This document shows, one piece after another, positions 7,552 to 44,319 of a DNA stretch of 50,902 nucleotides (position 1 is its first letter; the number at the start of each line of letters is the position of its first letter). The translations under genes were made by a program, and so were the position numbers. Origin of the DNA: a virus; IMG/VR virus record IMGVR_UViG_3300020185_000067, positions 1-50,902 of that record; one strand, written 5' to 3'. Under the pieces are notes generated by a model, which searched no databases, was not told where the DNA came from, and saw only the letters and a list, made by a program, of their open reading frames with translations.

Positions 7552-8027
7552 GTAATCCAAGAATAAGAAGCGAAGAAGCAAGCCTAATTTCACAGGCAAG
7601 AAAGAAGTTTATGGAAAATGGCCTAGAGTTTAAGGTAATAACAAAACCAGACGATTTTGATAATTTCTCTGTTTATGTTTTTAATTTAGAACACGACCTA
7701 ATTGATAAATACTACGGCTTAACGGTCTTACAGGCTCTTTCAAAAGCAATCATAGGAGAAGGCATAGATAGGGCCGTAGATGAGAATTCAGAAGAAGAAC
7801 TTGAACTTGTGGATCACCCCAATCATTATGGCGGAGTCGATGCTGAGCATGAAGTAATATCAGTTATTGAAGCTTGGGACCTTGGGTTCTCTCTTGGAAA
7901 TGTTGTTAAATACATCTCCAGGTCAGGTAAGAAGGTTGGTGTAGATAATATAGTAGACCTAGAGAAGGCCAAGTGGTATTTGGGAAGACACATAGCGAGA
8001 TTGAAATTGGAGCAGGAAAATGATTAG
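7548..8027 (+). CDS. DUF3310-containing protein
   Basis: 159 aa. The C-terminal half contains VDHPNHYGG, then VISVIEAWDLGFSLGNVVKYI, then DNIVDLEKAKWYLGRHI (given in parts), the hallmark of the phage DUF3310 family. That family is often annotated as nucleotide kinase or SaV-like, but its biochemical role is not established. The N-terminal half is unassigned. It overlaps the upstream gene by 4 nt (ATGA) and the downstream methyltransferase by 8 nt, indicating translational coupling. Confidence 0.75.
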   Translation: MSNPRIRSEEASLISQARKKFMENGLEFKVITKPDDFDNFSVYVFNLEHDLIDKYYGLTVLQALSKAIIGEGIDRAVDENSEEELELVDHPNHYGGVDAEHEVISVIEAWDLGFSLGNVVKYISRSGKKVGVDNIVDLEKAKWYLGRHIARLKLEQEND

Positions 8028-18036: not shown

Positions 18037-19896
18037 ATGAATTTAGAGAATACAATACTGTCGGATGTCACAGTTCATATGAAGTATGCAAAATACCTAG
18101 AAGCTTCTAAGCGTAGGGAGAACTGGGAAGATATTACAACTCGAAATATGGCTATGCATATTGAGAAGTTCCCTCATTTGGAGGATGAAATCAGATCAGC
18201 ATATGTATATGTATTTAATAAGAAAGTACTACCTTCAATGCGATCACTGCAGTTTGGAGGCAAACCTATCAAAGTAGCTCCAAACCGTATCTTTAATTGT
18301 GCGTTTGCTCCAATCGATGACGCCCGAGTTTTCGGAGAGATCATGTTCTTACTTCTTGGTGGAACAGGGGTTGGATTTTCAGTACAGAAGCATCATGTAG
18401 AGAAACTACCAGAGATTCGTCGACCAAACACAAATCGTAATCGTCGATTCCTAATTGGAGATTCAATTGAGGGTTGGTCAGATGCTGTTAGAGCACTAAT
18501 TAACTCTTACTTCAAGGGAACATCAAAACTACGATTCGACTTCTCGGATATTAGAGCAAAAGGTATGCGCTTGGTTACATCCGGTGGGAAAGCTCCAGGG
18601 CCACAGCCTTTGAAAGAGTGTTTGGTGAAAGTGGAAGGGATTTTAGATGGAAAACAAAACGGAGACAAACTCTCTACTATTGAGGTTCATGATATCATCT
18701 GTTATATTGCAGATGCCGTTCTAGCCGGAGGAATCCGACGGGCTGCACTCATTTCGTTGTTCTCAGCGAATGATGAAGAAATGCTTGGGTCGAAAGCAGG
18801 ATCATGGTGGGAGCTTAACCCACAACGAGGAAGAGCGAACAATTCAGCAGTTCTATTACGACATAAGATTACCGAAGAGTCTTTCAAGTTTGTTTGGAAG
18901 CGAATCGAAGAGTCAAAGTCTGGAGAACCGGGTTTCGTACTTTCAAATGATAGAGATTGGGGGGTTAACCCATGTGTTGAGATCGGCCTACGACCTAATC
19001 AATTCTGCAACTTGGTTGAGATTAATGTATCCGACGTTACAACTCAAGAAGAGCTGAATGCAAGATCACGCGCTGCAAGCTTCATAGCGACCCTTCAGGC
19101 GTCTTATACTGATTTTCATTACCTACGCCCTATCTGGAAGCGAACAACGGAAAAAGAGGCCCTTATTGGCGTTTCTATGACTGGTATTGCATCTGGTGGC
19201 GTACTAAAGCTTAGTATGACCGAGAGTTCTTTGGAAGTAAATAAAGAGAATCGAAGAGTTGCAATGCAAATTGGTATCAACAAGGCAGCCCGAACAACAT
19301 GTGTTAAGCCCGCAGGGTCAACAAGTTTAACTCTTGGAACTTCAAGCGGAATTCATGCTTGGCATGCTGAATATTACATTCGTAGATTGAGAGTTGGAAA
19401 GAACGAATCGATTTATGGATATCTTTTGGATAATATTCCGGGATTGCTAGAGGATGATAAGTTTAGACCACATGATACAGCGATTATCTCTATACCGCAG
19501 AGTGCACCAGATGGAGCAATCTTGCGTAGCGAGACAGCAATTGACCTTCTAGAGAGAGTAAAGAAAGTATCTATAGAATGGGTCAAAGGTGGACACCAGA
19601 CAGGCTCAAACGGACACAACGTCTCAGCTACGATCAGCATTAAGAGTGATGAATGGGCTGAAGTCGGACAGTGGATGTGGGAAAATAGAGAATACTATAA
19701 CGGCTTATCTGTTTTACCCTATAATGATCACAGTTATGTGCAAGCTCCATTTGAAGAGTGCTCGAAAGAGAAGTACGAAGAAATGCTCAAGCTAGTTAAG
19801 GGAATAAATCTAGATAAAGTAATTGAAGTTGATGATCAAACCGATTTAGCTGGAGAAATTGCCTGCGGTGGTGGTGGATCATGCGAGATTATCTAG
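18037..19896 (+). CDS. nrdJ: class II (adenosylcobalamin-dependent) ribonucleotide reductase
   Basis: 619 aa, shorter than the about 740-aa monomeric class II enzyme of Lactobacillus. FNCAFAP supplies the N-terminal reductant Cys, NPCVEI the radical Cys and Glu, FCNLVEI the partner Cys, and the tail ACGGGGSC the redox-shuttle pair. KPAGSTSLTLGTSSGIH and the GGIRRAAL region also match. It makes deoxynucleotides without oxygen or an NrdB partner, but needs host B12. It follows the helicase gene by 17 nt with AAGGAG. No intein is present, although this gene family often has one in phages. Confidence 0.9.
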   Translation: MNLENTILSDVTVHMKYAKYLEASKRRENWEDITTRNMAMHIEKFPHLEDEIRSAYVYVFNKKVLPSMRSLQFGGKPIKVAPNRIFNCAFAPIDDARVFGEIMFLLLGGTGVGFSVQKHHVEKLPEIRRPNTNRNRRFLIGDSIEGWSDAVRALINSYFKGTSKLRFDFSDIRAKGMRLVTSGGKAPGPQPLKECLVKVEGILDGKQNGDKLSTIEVHDIICYIADAVLAGGIRRAALISLFSANDEEMLGSKAGSWWELNPQRGRANNSAVLLRHKITEESFKFVWKRIEESKSGEPGFVLSNDRDWGVNPCVEIGLRPNQFCNLVEINVSDVTTQEELNARSRAASFIATLQASYTDFHYLRPIWKRTTEKEALIGVSMTGIASGGVLKLSMTESSLEVNKENRRVAMQIGINKAARTTCVKPAGSTSLTLGTSSGIHAWHAEYYIRRLRVGKNESIYGYLLDNIPGLLEDDKFRPHDTAIISIPQSAPDGAILRSETAIDLLERVKKVSIEWVKGGHQTGSNGHNVSATISIKSDEWAEVGQWMWENREYYNGLSVLPYNDHSYVQAPFEECSKEKYEEMLKLVKGINLDKVIEVDDQTDLAGEIACGGGGSCEII

Positions 19897-29628: not shown

Positions 29629-29701
29629 TTGGGTGTAACTCAGTGGTAGAGTGTCTGAGCTGATAATCAGGATGTCGTGGGTTCGATTCCCACCGCCCTC
29701 T
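29629..29701 (+). tRNA. tRNA-Ile (anticodon GAT), defective acceptor end
   Basis: Good D arm (ACTCAGTGGTAGAGT), anticodon stem CTGAG/TCAGG with loop CTGATAA (anticodon GAT), T arm GTGGG-TTCGATT-CCCAC. Only five acceptor pairs form (GGGTG/CGCCC); the first two positions are T against T/C. No CCA is encoded. Functional status uncertain. Confidence 0.75.
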
Positions 29702-29766
29702 CTTTTTAATTTGTAGAAAATGAATAAAAGAATTCTATAGCAATATTTACTAACAAGAGGTGACCA

Positions 29767-32517: not shown

Positions 32518-34128
32518 ATGAAAAACGAAGCAATTATTGTTAACGGTAAAGAGCTTAGAAGTTCTGATTTTGTGGGACTACATGCCCACAGTGCGTTTAG
32601 TATGTTTGATGGTTTTGGATTGCCCCAAGATCATATGGATTTCGCTTATTCGAATGGTTCGAAAGCCCTTGCTTTAACTGATCATGGGTCAATGAATGGT
32701 CTGTCTCACCAACTTTTAAAGGCAAAGAAGATGAAGATGGAAGGAAAAGATTTCAAGCCAATCTTTGGAGTTGAAGCATATTACATTGAATCTGTAGAAG
32801 AGTGGAGTAAGCTCAGAGCGGAAATTGCTTTGGATAAAAAGAGAGCAAGAGAAGTCAAAAGTGGTTTATCCGCTGTTGTTATGGAGGACGGCCAACGAGA
32901 TGATAAGAGAGCATTATCTCGTAAGAGACATATCATTCTTCTAGCGCAAAACCAGAAGGGACTAGAGAATATCTATGAGATGGTTTCTAAGTCATACACT
33001 GGGGATTACTTCTATCGTAAGCCTCGTATCGATTTCGAATTGCTGAAGAAGCACTCAGATGGCGTTATCGTCACGACAGCATGTCTTGGTGGTATAGCTT
33101 CGGAAGCAGTGTGGAAACACCAAGATGAAGGCGAAGACGCTGTATATGATAGTATGTTGGCTGATCTAACGAAGTTTCGAGACCTACTGGGAGATAGATT
33201 CTACGCAGAGCTACAATGGAATAATGTACCAGAACAGCATATGTTGAATACTGTCCTAATTAGAGTAGCGAAGACACTTGGTGTTGAGCTGATATCAACT
33301 TGTGACTCACACTATCCAAACCCTGATGCTTGGAAAGGTAGAGAGCTATACAAGAGACTGGGTTGGCTCGGAAAGATGCCGGAGTGGATGAGTGATGAAA
33401 TTCCTGAAAGCGTTGAGGAGATCGGTTATGAACTATATCCAAAGAATGCTCATGAGATGTGGGAATCATATCGAAAGTATTCTAATATGCTCGGTGTTGC
33501 TTATGATGATGATATTGTTATGGACTCAATCACAAGAACGAGAGAGATTGCATTTGGACAAATTGAAGACTTTCTCCCTGATACTTCTGTGCAGCTTCCT
33601 TCTTTTATCGTACCAGATGATACTGATGCTGATACGTTTTTATCAGAAACTGCAAAGACTGCGTTAGATACTTACATTTCTAGTATGAAAGAGTCGAAAA
33701 AGAGAGAATATAGTAACAGATTGGACAAAGAACTCCTAATCATTGCATCTCAGAAGTTTTCGGAGTATTTTCTAGTAACAAAAGCTATTACTGACTTCTC
33801 TTGGAAATATACTTTCGTTGGTCCCGGTAGAGGCTCTGCGGCCGGGAGTTTGTTGGCGTTCTTACTAAAGATTACCCACATCGATCCAATCATGTGGAAC
33901 CTTCCTTTTGAGCGTTTTTTGACCAAAAGCAAGCTAGAGGGTTTTGAAACGAAAACAGGCGGATACAAAGAGCGAGGTGACTATATCAAGCTTACAAGCG
34001 ATAGTGGAAAAGAAATCACGTTAAGCCCAGAGCTATTCATCAAGGTGAAGAGGGGAGCTTTTGAGAGAGAGGTGATGGTTAAAAACCTTATCGAGGGGGA
34101 CGAAATCGTCTCTTTATTCAAAATTTAA
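32518..34128 (+). CDS. dnaE: DNA polymerase III alpha, N-terminal half (PHP and start of palm) with Hint-like C-terminal tail
   Basis: 536 aa. PHP domain from about residue 20: LHAHSAFSMFDG, LTDHGSMNG, PIFGVEAYYIE, TACLGG, STCDSHY. The palm starts with FVGPGRGSAAGSLLAFLL and PFERFLTKS near residues 435-470, as in bacterial C-family polymerases. There the protein leaves the polymerase pattern, and residues of about 485-536 (DYIKLTSDSGKEITLSPELF and VKNLIEGDEIVS) resemble the block B end of an intein N-half. The catalytic PDIDLDF motif is encoded in the next gene. The usual block A with N-terminal Cys is not seen. Confidence 0.85.
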   Translation: MKNEAIIVNGKELRSSDFVGLHAHSAFSMFDGFGLPQDHMDFAYSNGSKALALTDHGSMNGLSHQLLKAKKMKMEGKDFKPIFGVEAYYIESVEEWSKLRAEIALDKKRAREVKSGLSAVVMEDGQRDDKRALSRKRHIILLAQNQKGLENIYEMVSKSYTGDYFYRKPRIDFELLKKHSDGVIVTTACLGGIASEAVWKHQDEGEDAVYDSMLADLTKFRDLLGDRFYAELQWNNVPEQHMLNTVLIRVAKTLGVELISTCDSHYPNPDAWKGRELYKRLGWLGKMPEWMSDEIPESVEEIGYELYPKNAHEMWESYRKYSNMLGVAYDDDIVMDSITRTREIAFGQIEDFLPDTSVQLPSFIVPDDTDADTFLSETAKTALDTYISSMKESKKREYSNRLDKELLIIASQKFSEYFLVTKAITDFSWKYTFVGPGRGSAAGSLLAFLLKITHIDPIMWNLPFERFLTKSKLEGFETKTGGYKERGDYIKLTSDSGKEITLSPELFIKVKRGAFEREVMVKNLIEGDEIVSLFKI

Positions 34129-34149
34129 TATAAAACTAAGCAAAAGCAC

Positions 34150-34178
34150 TTGACCTAAGGTAGCAAACGAGTTACCTT
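34150..34178 (+). promoter_or_regulatory. promoter with overlapping inverted repeat before PolIII alpha, part 2
   Basis: TTGACC, 17 bp, TACCTT, weaker than the other copies. CCTAAGGTA and TACCTTAGG (34154-34181) form a perfect 9-bp inverted repeat that covers spacer and -10, so a hairpin or a repressor could control it. Confidence 0.55.
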
Positions 34179-34198
34179 AGGATAAACCGGGAGGGTTA

Positions 34199-36349
34199 AT
34201 GAACTTTAAGATCAATAAAATAGAGAAGCTAACTGACGTAGAATTAGAAATCGCAGTTGTAGCTAATGGTAGAAATGAAACTACTGAGGGCGTAACAGTC
34301 CACAACAGAAAAGAAACTTCGATGCCGGATATTGATCTTGACTTCGGAGATAACTCTCTCATTAAGGATAAAATGGTAGATGAGTGGGGATCTGATTCTG
34401 TAGCTTTCATTACGAATTACAACACTCTTCAACTTGCTTCTCTTATTAAGGATATCTCGAAGAGAGAAGGCGTCAACTTTATCGAGGTGAACCAAGTAAC
34501 TAAGATTATGGTAAAAGAAGCCACAGGTCCCGCAAAGAAAGCGAGAGGAATCAAAGCTGGTATGTATTCTCCAACGTTCCAAGATTTATGTGAGTATTCC
34601 ACGTCAGTTCAGGACTTCTTTGCAAAATACCCACACATCAAGTCACAAGTGCTTGGACTCGTCGGGCAGCCCCGCTCAATCGGTCGTCATGCCGCCGGAG
34701 CCATCATCGGAGACTATCTGCCTAGCAGAATGCCTTTAATCACTTCTAAGGGCATTAGACAGACTCCTTGGACAGAAGGTCAAAACGTTCGTCACTTGGA
34801 ACCTCTTGGATTCATTAAGTTTGATATCCTTGGCCTTGAGACATTGAAGACGTTCGAGGATGCTATCTATCGTATTCTTAGAAACAAAGGAGAAGAGGCA
34901 ACCTTTGAGAACGCTAAGAAGTGGTACTTCGCGAACTTGCACCCATCTGTGCTTGATATGAATGACCAAAAGGTGTACAAGGAAGTATTTCATGATGGTA
35001 ACTATGCCGGAACGTTTCAATTTATGAATGATGGTATGCAACGTTTGGGAACTTCATCTAAAGTATCTTCTTTGGAGGAAATCGCAACCGTTTCAGCCAC
35101 TTATCGTCCGGGACCATTGTCTGCGGGCGTGGATAAGTTGTACTTGAAAGCAAAGTTTAGTGCTGAGCCAATCAAATACGATCACCCAATCATTGAGAGA
35201 GTTTTGAGTAAGACCTTCGGGCTAATAATCTTCCAAGAGGATATCATGAATCTAGCTCATGCTCTGGGAGATGATATCTCAATGTCTGATGCGAATGTTC
35301 TTCGTAAGCTACTCACCAAACAGGGCCTAACAGGCAAAGTAAAAGAGAAGAAGGAAATCCTTCGAAAGAAGTTTATTCTTGGTTGCGAGAAAAATGGTCT
35401 GGGTTTCGTTAAAGGCAAGGCTCTCTGGGATAAGATGGAGTACTTCTCGGGATACGGATTTTCCAAAAATCATGCAATTCCATATTCTATCATCACTTTT
35501 CAGTGTGCTTGGTTACAGACATACTATAAGGATGAATGGGTATCAGCATTTTTGGACCATGAGCCCGCAAAACGTAAGGAATCAGCGATTAGTATTGCTC
35601 AATCATTAGGTTATAAGATTAAGGGACTGGACATCAATACTTCAGGGATGCAGTGGGAAGTGAGAGATGGAGTGCTAATCTCTCCACTCACAACAATCAA
35701 GGGATTAGGTCAGGCGGCCATTGAGGAAATCATCGAGAAGCGTCCATTTGCCTCTGTAGAGGAACTCTTGTTCGACAAAGGTGTGGTCGCACGGAAAGTT
35801 AATAAGAAGTCCCTAGATGCCCTTTGTAGAGCCGGAGCAATGGAATCATTGTTAGATGATAGGTTCTTTGGTACCAAACACTTCTGGTCAGCAGTTGTAG
35901 TTGATAAGCCAACGAACAAGAAGAAGCTTGGCTTGAACATTAAGAAGTACAGAAAAGAGGGAGACTTCTCCAAGTCTGAGCTCATTACAAACTATAAGAC
36001 TTTGACTGGTATATATCCGATCAATATGGTAGTACCTGCAAAGGCATATGCTTTTTTCAAGAGTCAGGGAATACTTCCAATCTCAGAGTATGATCCTGAT
36101 TTGGGGAAATGTTGGTGTGTCCCCACAGAAGTTGTAGAGAAGAAGACCAAAAGGGGTAAAGACTACTTCACTGTGAAAGTTATTGATTCAAACATGGAAG
36201 AAAAGAGGTTCAATTGTTGGGGAGTTAAATCAAAAGTGGATGTTGTACATTTGAATCGACTCTATGTTGTAGAGTGGCCAAAGTATGATGAAGCTTGGGG
36301 CTTCTCAACATCTGGTCCGATATCAAAGAATTGGAAGCTTTTAGGATAA
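34199..36349 (+). CDS. dnaE: DNA polymerase III alpha, C-terminal half (catalytic palm, fingers) preceded by a C-Hint segment
   Basis: 716 aa. Residues 1-36 (FKINKIEKLTDVELEIAV and TTEGVTVHN) match the C-half of a split intein, ending in His-Asn at 34301-34306. The polymerase resumes as RKETSMPDIDLDF, which carries the catalytic Asp pair; FIKFDILGLETL supplies the third. SIGRHAAGAII, YRPGPLSAG, IIFQEDIM, GYGFSKNHAIPYSIIT and the tandem HhH region (TTIKGLGQAAIEEI) follow. No clamp-binding tail is obvious. The first residue after HN is Arg, not Cys, Ser or Thr, so canonical trans-splicing looks unlikely. Confidence 0.87.
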   Translation: MNFKINKIEKLTDVELEIAVVANGRNETTEGVTVHNRKETSMPDIDLDFGDNSLIKDKMVDEWGSDSVAFITNYNTLQLASLIKDISKREGVNFIEVNQVTKIMVKEATGPAKKARGIKAGMYSPTFQDLCEYSTSVQDFFAKYPHIKSQVLGLVGQPRSIGRHAAGAIIGDYLPSRMPLITSKGIRQTPWTEGQNVRHLEPLGFIKFDILGLETLKTFEDAIYRILRNKGEEATFENAKKWYFANLHPSVLDMNDQKVYKEVFHDGNYAGTFQFMNDGMQRLGTSSKVSSLEEIATVSATYRPGPLSAGVDKLYLKAKFSAEPIKYDHPIIERVLSKTFGLIIFQEDIMNLAHALGDDISMSDANVLRKLLTKQGLTGKVKEKKEILRKKFILGCEKNGLGFVKGKALWDKMEYFSGYGFSKNHAIPYSIITFQCAWLQTYYKDEWVSAFLDHEPAKRKESAISIAQSLGYKIKGLDINTSGMQWEVRDGVLISPLTTIKGLGQAAIEEIIEKRPFASVEELLFDKGVVARKVNKKSLDALCRAGAMESLLDDRFFGTKHFWSAVVVDKPTNKKKLGLNIKKYRKEGDFSKSELITNYKTLTGIYPINMVVPAKAYAFFKSQGILPISEYDPDLGKCWCVPTEVVEKKTKRGKDYFTVKVIDSNMEEKRFNCWGVKSKVDVVHLNRLYVVEWPKYDEAWGFSTSGPISKNWKLLG

Positions 36350-42729: not shown

Positions 42730-44319
42730 ATGACCAAACACTTTAAAAACAATCTTGAATTATTTCAAGATCTTATGAAGGGAGTTAACATTCTTGCTGA
42801 TAACGTAGCCACGACCCTTGGGCCTAGAGGTCGAACCGTAGCAATGTATCATAGGGAGCAGAACGTCCCTGTGATCACAAAGGATGGAGTTACAGTAGCT
42901 GATTTTATTGAACTGGAGGATCCATTCCAGAACCTTGGAGTTCAAATCATAAAACAGGCAGCAAAGCAGACTGTAGAGGCAGCAGGCGACGGCACAACGA
43001 CTTCAACCGTACTCGCTCGTGCTATCCTTAAAGAAGGTCAAAGATATTTAGGAGCAGGAGTATCACCTGTAGAGTTAAAGCGCGGTATCGATAAGGCAGT
43101 TGAGTGTATCGTAGAGAGATTGGAAGCACAAGCTCGACCGATTGAAACAGTAGAGGACATACTCCACATCGCAACTATCTCAGCTAACAACGATAAGGCC
43201 ATTGGTACTCTAGTATCAACGGCAATTGATAAGGCAGGCAAGGATGGTTCCGTGTTGGTTGAAGAGGCGAGAAGCAATAGTACATCACTTGATCTCATTG
43301 AGGGCTTTAGATTCAACTCTGGTTACTCTAGTACATCAAGTCAGTTTATCAATAATGTAAGGTCAGCCTGTGTTGATCACGAGGGAGTTATTCTCTTAGT
43401 TACTGATGAAGCCATTACAACGGTAGAACAGATTATGCCCACACTTGAGATTGCAGCAAGGGATCGACGACCTTTATTAATCGTTTCGAATGATATTGAA
43501 GGCCAAGCTCTAGCATCATTGATTGCAAATGTTAGGCGACCCGATCACGCTAATCCAATGAAGATCGCTGCTGTGAAAGCTCCCAAGTATGGAGAAGAGC
43601 GCAGACAGATCCTCAAAGACTTATGTGCTTCAACTGGGGCGACATTTATCTCTAGAGAGGAAGGTCTAACTCTTCGTGATGTAAAACTAACTCACTTTGG
43701 TAACGCAACAAAGATTAACATGACAAAGGCTTGGACAACCATCATTGGCGGCTCCGGAGAGCGAGAAGGCATTGAAGATCGCATTGAAGCCATCAAGGTT
43801 GAGATACAGCAGACAGAAGACCTCCGGGACTGCGAGCGCCTACAAGAGAGGATTACACGCCTTGCTAGTGGTGTAGCGATCATCCGTGTTGGTGCCGCAA
43901 CTGAGGTTGAAATGATGGAGAAGAAACATCGTATTGACGATGCCTTGGAAGCTGTTCGCTCCGCTCAGGGGGAAGGTATTATTCCCGGTGGCGGAATTGC
44001 CCTCATTCGAGCCATATCGGGATTGGAAGTAGAGACAGATACAGAAGAACAACAGCTCGGGGTGCAGATCGTTCTGAGGGCTTGTGAAGCACCATTGAGA
44101 ACGATGGCGGAGAACGCAGGTGAGTCAGGCGATATCGTGTTACAGTCCGTTAGAAATGCTACTGGCGACACTGGGTATGACTTCTTGAACAGATGCATGG
44201 TCCAAGCTTACGAAGCAGGTATCGTTGACCCGAAAAAGGTTACCCGATGTGCACTTGAAAATGCTGCATCAGCGGCAGGAACTTTATTAACCACATCTCA
44301 TGCGATAGTGAATGTTTAG
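42730..44319 (+). CDS. groEL: GroEL chaperonin
   Basis: 529 aa. All ATP-site signatures are present: TLGPRGR, ITKDGVTVA, GDGTTTSTVLA, and EGIIPGGG near the C terminus; GAATEVEMMEKKHRIDDALEAV gives the hydrolysis Asp, quoted here by its start GAATEVEM and its Asp-containing RIDDAL. The apical region (43.2-43.7 kb) diverges more. The Gly-Met tail of bacterial GroEL is missing. It probably folds the major capsid or other phage proteins, with the GroES-like protein at 20 kb as cap or with the host GroES. It is preceded by a promoter and a leader terminator. Confidence 0.95.
   Translation: MTKHFKNNLELFQDLMKGVNILADNVATTLGPRGRTVAMYHREQNVPVITKDGVTVADFIELEDPFQNLGVQIIKQAAKQTVEAAGDGTTTSTVLARAILKEGQRYLGAGVSPVELKRGIDKAVECIVERLEAQARPIETVEDILHIATISANNDKAIGTLVSTAIDKAGKDGSVLVEEARSNSTSLDLIEGFRFNSGYSSTSSQFINNVRSACVDHEGVILLVTDEAITTVEQIMPTLEIAARDRRPLLIVSNDIEGQALASLIANVRRPDHANPMKIAAVKAPKYGEERRQILKDLCASTGATFISREEGLTLRDVKLTHFGNATKINMTKAWTTIIGGSGEREGIEDRIEAIKVEIQQTEDLRDCERLQERITRLASGVAIIRVGAATEVEMMEKKHRIDDALEAVRSAQGEGIIPGGGIALIRAISGLEVETDTEEQQLGVQIVLRACEAPLRTMAENAGESGDIVLQSVRNATGDTGYDFLNRCMVQAYEAGIVDPKKVTRCALENAASAAGTLLTTSHAIVNV

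What the first reader, a model, noticed from the sequence alone, without database searches (positions are those of the whole stretch)
32518..36349. DNA polymerase III alpha fractured by split Hint halves that lack normal splice residues
The polymerase is cut between PFERFL and SMPDIDLDF, right before the catalytic Asp motif. The first protein ends in a block B-like intein segment and the second starts with a C-intein-like segment ending in VHN. However, no block A with N-terminal Cys/Ser is visible in the first half, and the residue after HN is Arg. So either splicing works in an unusual way, or only C-terminal cleavage remains and the polymerase acts as two subunits. Split inteins with fractured genes are known in environmental phages (for example gp41-1, NrdJ-1, IMPDH-1), but this combination is unusual.
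Basis: partly seen in the sequence, partly recalled or inferred. Interest (0 to 1): 0.8.

Follow-up and report, generated by a model that had tools for sequence, protein, structure and literature searches.

The report
Phage polymerase split by non-splicing intein
A phage DNA polymerase is made as two separate proteins whose broken ends carry the remains of a split intein that can no longer splice; the same design recurs in many phages of Bacteroidota bacteria, so the remains probably now hold the two halves together instead of joining them.

Summary
Observation confirmed. DnaE-type polymerase III alpha is split into ORFs 32518-34128 and 34199-36349. Close relatives read straight through, with seven residues between FERFL and PDID. 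The 68-aa tail of part 1 matches the intein segment after block A; the 36-aa head of part 2 matches a C-intein ending VHN, followed by Arg. No register gives a legal splice site, and the tails contain no Cys.

This is not a one-off. Two more marine phages share the arrangement, with a LAGLIDADG homing endonuclease gene between the halves. The same split, with Hint-like but residue-less tails, occurs in cultured Tenacibaculum and Cellulophaga phages, Bacteroides phage BS-TP1 and 22 Bacteroidales genome loci, including a complete B. fragilis chromosome. One other phage has an orthodox split intein (Cys1, TxxH, Asn/Cys+1) at the same site. Tails are under purifying selection; complete phage genomes show no PolA or PolB.

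Best reading: a split intein lost splicing and was kept as a docking domain in a two-subunit polymerase, like phage Aeh1 NrdA but with a Hint-derived interface. Homology and missing residues are shown; association and activity are inferred. New variant of a known kind.

The parts
32518..34128 (+). Part 1: DnaE N-half (PHP, start of palm) with Hint-like C-terminal tail, 536 aa
   Evidence: ORF; Pfam PHP E 1e-31, DNA_pol3_alpha positions 7-97
33922..34125 (+). N-tail (68 aa, TKSKLEGF...SLFKI): intein segment after block A; no Cys, no TxxH
   Evidence: Absent from intact relatives; hhalign to inteins; homologous in L008 and in Larrie
34154..34181 (+). Intergenic hairpin, 11-bp stem, no U-tract
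   Evidence: RNA fold z -4.2; no terminator pattern
34189..34195 (+). GGGAGGG, likely ribosome-binding site of part 2
   Evidence: Read in sequence 4-10 nt before ATG
34199..36349 (+). Part 2: Hint-like head plus DnaE C-half (catalytic Asp motif, fingers, HhH), 716 aa
   Evidence: ORF; Pfam DNA_pol3_alpha positions 95-260, finger, HHH_6
34199..34306 (+). C-tail (36 aa, MNFKINKIEKL...GVTVHN): C-intein-like, followed by Arg
   Evidence: Aligned with L008 and L012; hhalign score 16.3 against permutation maximum 13.9
34325..34345 (+). PDIDLDF, catalytic Asp motif of the palm, now near the start of part 2
   Evidence: Sequence; conserved in all relatives

Best explanation
The polymerase works as two separately translated subunits. 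The facing ends are the two halves of a former split intein (Hint fold) at the FERFL/PDID site. Block A, the block B Thr-x-x-His and a +1 nucleophile are gone (in relatives the terminal His-Asn too), so the ends cannot splice; they fold together as a non-covalent docking module that brings the palm of part 1 next to the catalytic Asp motif of part 2. Shown: the split, Hint homology of the tails, the missing residues, the recurrence, purifying selection, and no other recognisable polymerase in complete relatives. Inferred: that the tails bind each other, that no covalent joining occurs, and that the complex polymerises.
For: Hint homology of tails. No legal splice register; no Cys. Two further members of the window type and cultured or genomic relatives with the same split and even fewer splice residues. 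Tails selected: pN/pS 0.31-0.42 for N-tails. Complete genomes of Larrie, phiST and BS-TP1 have no PolA or PolB match and only the two DnaE halves. Orthodox split intein at the same site in L142 gives the likely ancestor type. Precedent: split NrdA of Aeh1 and split gp43 of phage 25 are active without splicing (PMC2988022).
Against: No experiment shows binding or activity. The window's own C-tail keeps VHN, which a pure docking domain would not need. Structure models are of modest confidence (pLDDT 72 and 63) and the pair could only be modelled for homologue L110. C-tail homology to inteins is weak outside the window group. L008's contig has a PolA-like ORF, so DnaE may not be its only polymerase.
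Confidence: 0.75

Rival explanations
1. Unorthodox trans-splicing: the halves are ligated by a chemistry that needs neither block A nor a +1 Cys/Ser/Thr.
For: Hint fold and VHN kept in window and L008.
Against: No register restoring seven residues has legal residues; no Cys in these tails, so class 3 chemistry is out; L012 lost His of HN; Larrie and phiST lack the C-intein end entirely.
Confidence: 0.05
2. Only C-terminal Asn cyclisation remains: part 2 sheds its 36-aa head at N36|R37 after or without docking.
For: Asn before the extein is kept in window, L008 and L012.
Against: Penultimate His lost in L012; no such Asn/His pair in the other clades; no evident benefit.
Confidence: 0.1
3. The tails are a lineage-specific beta-rich docking domain that only resembles Hint and never came from an intein.
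For: Single-sequence searches find no intein; Bacteroidales C-tails match inteins only weakly.
Against: Profiles, Foldseek and PDB family search all rank inteins first; homing endonuclease genes of several families sit in the break; orthodox intein at the same site.
Confidence: 0.08
4. The gene is decaying or the break is an assembly error.
For: Environmental contig.
Against: Same break in three IMG/VR records, cultured phages and a complete B. fragilis chromosome; pN well below pS; both frames open, part 2 with its own start and ribosome-binding site.
Confidence: 0.02

Closest known systems
Genes-in-pieces enzymes: phage Aeh1 NrdA (mobE), phage 25 / 44RR gp43A-43B, T4 gp39/gp60 (mobA)
   Same: Essential phage enzyme split by an endonuclease insertion or other insert, active as two chains without splicing (PMC2988022)
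   Different: Those are not reported there to carry Hint-derived tails; here a different enzyme (family C polymerase) with intein-like facing ends
Fractured genes with split inteins (gp41-1, NrdJ-1, IMPDH-1 type; Dassa 2009, paper not held, from memory)
   Same: Gene broken within an intein, often with a free-standing endonuclease gene between the halves; orthodox example at this very site is L142
   Different: Those inteins keep Cys1, TxxH, Asn and +1 nucleophile and splice; the window family lacks block A and legal junctions
Cyanobacterial split DnaE intein (Npu/Ssp DnaE)
   Same: Split intein in polymerase III alpha
   Different: Different insertion site (general knowledge, not tested here) and fully active trans-splicing
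Domesticated or regulatory inteins (e.g. RadA intein)
   Same: Intein kept after losing mobility
   Different: Those keep splicing (PMC8987985); here splicing itself is lost

Membership tests
Family C DNA polymerase (DnaE) | PHP, NTPase/palm, finger and HhH domains with PDIDxDF motif | tested here: met
   Pfam and NCBIfam across the two ORFs
Splicing split intein | Hint fold formed by two halves | tested here: met
   By homology and modelling only
Splicing split intein | Block A with Cys/Ser at position 1 | tested here: not met
   Alignment begins after block A; no legal residue in any register
Splicing split intein | Block B Thr-x-x-His | tested here: not met
   TLSPELF/TLSPNLF in window/L008 against TQDHKW in L142
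Splicing split intein | C-terminal His-Asn followed by Cys/Ser/Thr | tested here: not met
   HN present but +1 is Arg in window and L008; RN|R in L012
Splicing split intein | Ligated product | not testable with these tools
   Needs mass spectrometry
Genes-in-pieces enzyme | Intact relatives are one ORF; the break has no missing polymerase residues | tested here: met
Genes-in-pieces enzyme | Homing endonuclease in or near the break | tested here: inconclusive
   Not in the window (70 nt gap) but in L008 and L012
Genes-in-pieces enzyme | Two chains form an active enzyme | not testable with these tools
   Needs co-expression and activity assay

The most novel reading that the evidence does not exclude
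Split inteins have been turned, more than once or by transfer as endonuclease-plus-tails cassettes, into non-splicing docking domains that make a family C replicase an obligate two-subunit enzyme in several clades of marine and Bacteroidota phages.
Probability: 0.6. Interest if true: 0.85.

Novelty: new variant of a known kind. Interest (0 to 1): 0.75.

Why it matters
Inteins are thought to persist only while they splice, because a protein interrupted by a dead intein fails. Here the splicing chemistry is gone but the Hint halves stay under selection, which suggests an escape route: a split selfish element becomes a subunit interface. One site offers a natural series (uninterrupted, orthodox split intein, endonuclease plus dead tails, dead tails alone), with cultured phages in which to test it. 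It also shows a replicative polymerase palm built from two chains.

Tried and rejected
Pfam, NCBIfam and PDB searches of the window tails alone gave nothing; family profiles were needed. A fused AF2 chain of the window halves would have needed a four-letter frame step that the tool does not accept; it was dropped, and homologue L110, where both ORFs share a frame, was used with its single TAA read as Gly. The 60-aa insert of Bacteroides phage DAC23 at the same site was considered a re-fused relic but is not supported (8 of 60 shuffles as good). Scans starting from the tails or the endonuclease gave few or no new loci. KLEB27-3 is split elsewhere in dnaE by an HNH gene and is unrelated. The very strong hhalign match between Bacteroidales and window N-tail sets is not used as evidence, because the second set already held two members of the first group.

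Full report
What is in the window. The virus record (50,902 b) encodes a DnaE-type DNA polymerase III alpha in two ORFs, 32518-34128 (536 aa) and 34199-36349 (716 aa), 70 nt apart and in different frames. Pfam assigns the first to PHP plus the start of the alpha NTPase/palm domain (profile positions 7-97 of 260) and the second to the rest of that domain (95-260), fingers and HhH (NCBIfam agrees).

The tails are inserted sequence. Four relatives at 72-74% identity (L002, L003, L004, L009) are single ORFs reading FERFLTRGSSGFPDIDIDF or near it. In eighty related loci the intact ones have seven residues between the FERFL-type motif and PDID. The window instead has 68 residues after FERFL before the stop, and 36 residues plus RKETSM before PDID.

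The tails are Hint. Single-sequence searches found nothing. A profile of the window and L008 tails against seven inteins (gp41-1, gp41-8, NrdJ-1, IMPDH-1, Npu and Ssp DnaE, L142) gives score 30.5, E 1e-4, with 0 of 100 column permutations as high (maximum 18.2); columns 21-105 align to 48-136 of 137, so essentially only block A is missing. Of nineteen N-tails from all clades, PF14890 Intein_splicing is the commonest Pfam match (6 members, best E 4.5e-4, below the curated cut-off), and their profile finds intein chains 2jmz (E 0.0024), 5o9j (0.017) and 9hth (0.065) at intein residues 74-129. In homologue L110 the two ORFs share a frame, so the pair was folded as one chain with one TAA read as Gly, a modelling device only; pLDDT is 72, and the first 18 Foldseek PDB hits are all inteins (E 0.03-0.78). 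The window N-tail alone gives a weak model (pLDDT 63) whose best-supported hits are again inteins and Hedgehog Hint domains.

It cannot splice by known routes. If excision must restore seven residues, the eight registers pair first residues T,K,S,K,L,E,G,F with last residues H,N,R,K,E,T,S,M and +1 residues N,R,K,E,T,S,M,P in that order; none has a nucleophile first, Asn or Gln last and Cys/Ser/Thr at +1 (read from the sequence). The window, L008, Larrie and phiST tails hold no Cys, which also excludes the class 3 route. The block B His is absent.

The design recurs. L008 (IMG/VR, 183,930 b) has homologous tails and, in the break, a LAGLIDADG endonuclease with Myb-like domains. L012 shares the endonuclease (81% identity) and C-tail but ends RN|R. 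Tenacibaculum phage Larrie and Cellulophaga phage phiST carry the same split 1-2 nt apart, with a homologous N-tail (E 3e-6 including the extein end) and a 17-aa C-tail without HN. Environmental relatives L107-L110 and L114 agree (L114 tail). Bacteroides phage BS-TP1 and 22 Bacteroidales loci (L191-L212), including the complete chromosome of B. fragilis Q1F2, have the split with N-tails of about 80 aa and C-tails of about 32 aa; N-parts were seen in 21 of them, some with helicase-, methyltransferase- or HNH-like ORFs between the halves. Their N-tail profile matches inteins with E 3.9e-6, 0 of 60 permutations. Position 1 in these is Ala or Cys, but block B His and terminal Asn are missing.

An orthodox version exists at the same site. 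L142 reads FFRFIDISR|CFIGGTKV...TQDH...*, then a GIY-YIG/NUMOD3 endonuclease ORF, then ...CLENKIITKN|CDLPDIDMDF: Cys1, TxxH, Asn and Cys+1, restoring seven residues exactly (PF14890 E 6.6e-5, GIY-YIG E 6e-11). Close relatives L133 and L151 are uninterrupted.

Selection and history. Window versus L008: N-tail pN 0.35 at pS 0.80, C-tail 0.28 at 0.72 (synonymous sites near saturation). In the Larrie/phiST-like group N-tail pN/pS is 0.31-0.42 against 0.21-0.33 for the polymerase; C-tail values are mostly below 0.5 but rest on 17 codons. In a 68-row tree starred branches force at least four changes; the window, L008 and L012 lie in a starred clade with four intact rows, while the six Larrie/phiST-like rows are all split. 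This fits endonuclease-driven gain or loss in the window's clade and long vertical retention elsewhere (inference).

Function. Larrie, phiST and BS-TP1 are complete genome records with no PolA or PolB match and only the two DnaE halves; Larrie is predicted lytic (PMC10013915). L008's contig does carry a PolA-like ORF. A non-covalent two-subunit polymerase held by the dead Hint halves is the simplest account. Split NrdA of Aeh1 and split gp43 of phage 25 are active as two chains (PMC2988022). Literature searches found no description of this arrangement, but the key 2009 paper on fractured genes is not in the library, so novelty is provisional.

Noticed in passing
L103 (MT835601.1) 940-1060: GIY-YIG-like ORF, then the C-part whose frame breaks inside the LPD/IDTD motif at a 40-nt insert with a strong hairpin, flanked by GAT codons (RNA fold z -4.4). 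Resembles the T4 gene 60 translational bypass, which also accompanies a homing endonuclease (PMC5009743). Single unverified scaffold.
   Followed up: partly
L100 (MT835494.1) about 7688-7800: C-part frame breaks by 7 nt just before DIDVDY, next to a perfect hairpin GGAGGGCGGA-CAT-TCCGCCCTCC, downstream of an HNH-like ORF; Bacteroidales relatives L203 and L204 are in frame there. Could be bypass, frameshift or assembly error.
   Followed up: partly
window 34154-34164: The intergenic hairpin contains CCTAAGGTAGC, which resembles the conserved 23S rRNA I-CeuI core (from memory); once in the window.
   Followed up: no
L098 (Bacteroides phage DAC23) 3276-7109: Single-chain DnaE with an in-frame insert of about 60 aa at the same FERFL/PDID site; no detectable Hint similarity.
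   Followed up: partly
L107 and L109: In this group the N- and C-part genes can be separated by, or lie apart with, unrelated ORFs, so adjacency is not needed.
   Followed up: no
window 29629-29702: ARAGORN tRNA with unresolved two-base anticodon next to tRNA-Ala.
   Followed up: no
window 42730-44319 and 18037-19896: Phage-encoded GroEL chaperonin (PHROG E 2e-131) and ribonucleotide reductase (E 9e-121) in the same record.
   Followed up: no
L006 (Bacillus phage KLEB27-3): DnaE split at a different place (finger region) with an HNH endonuclease gene between the halves, another gene-in-pieces polymerase.
   Followed up: no
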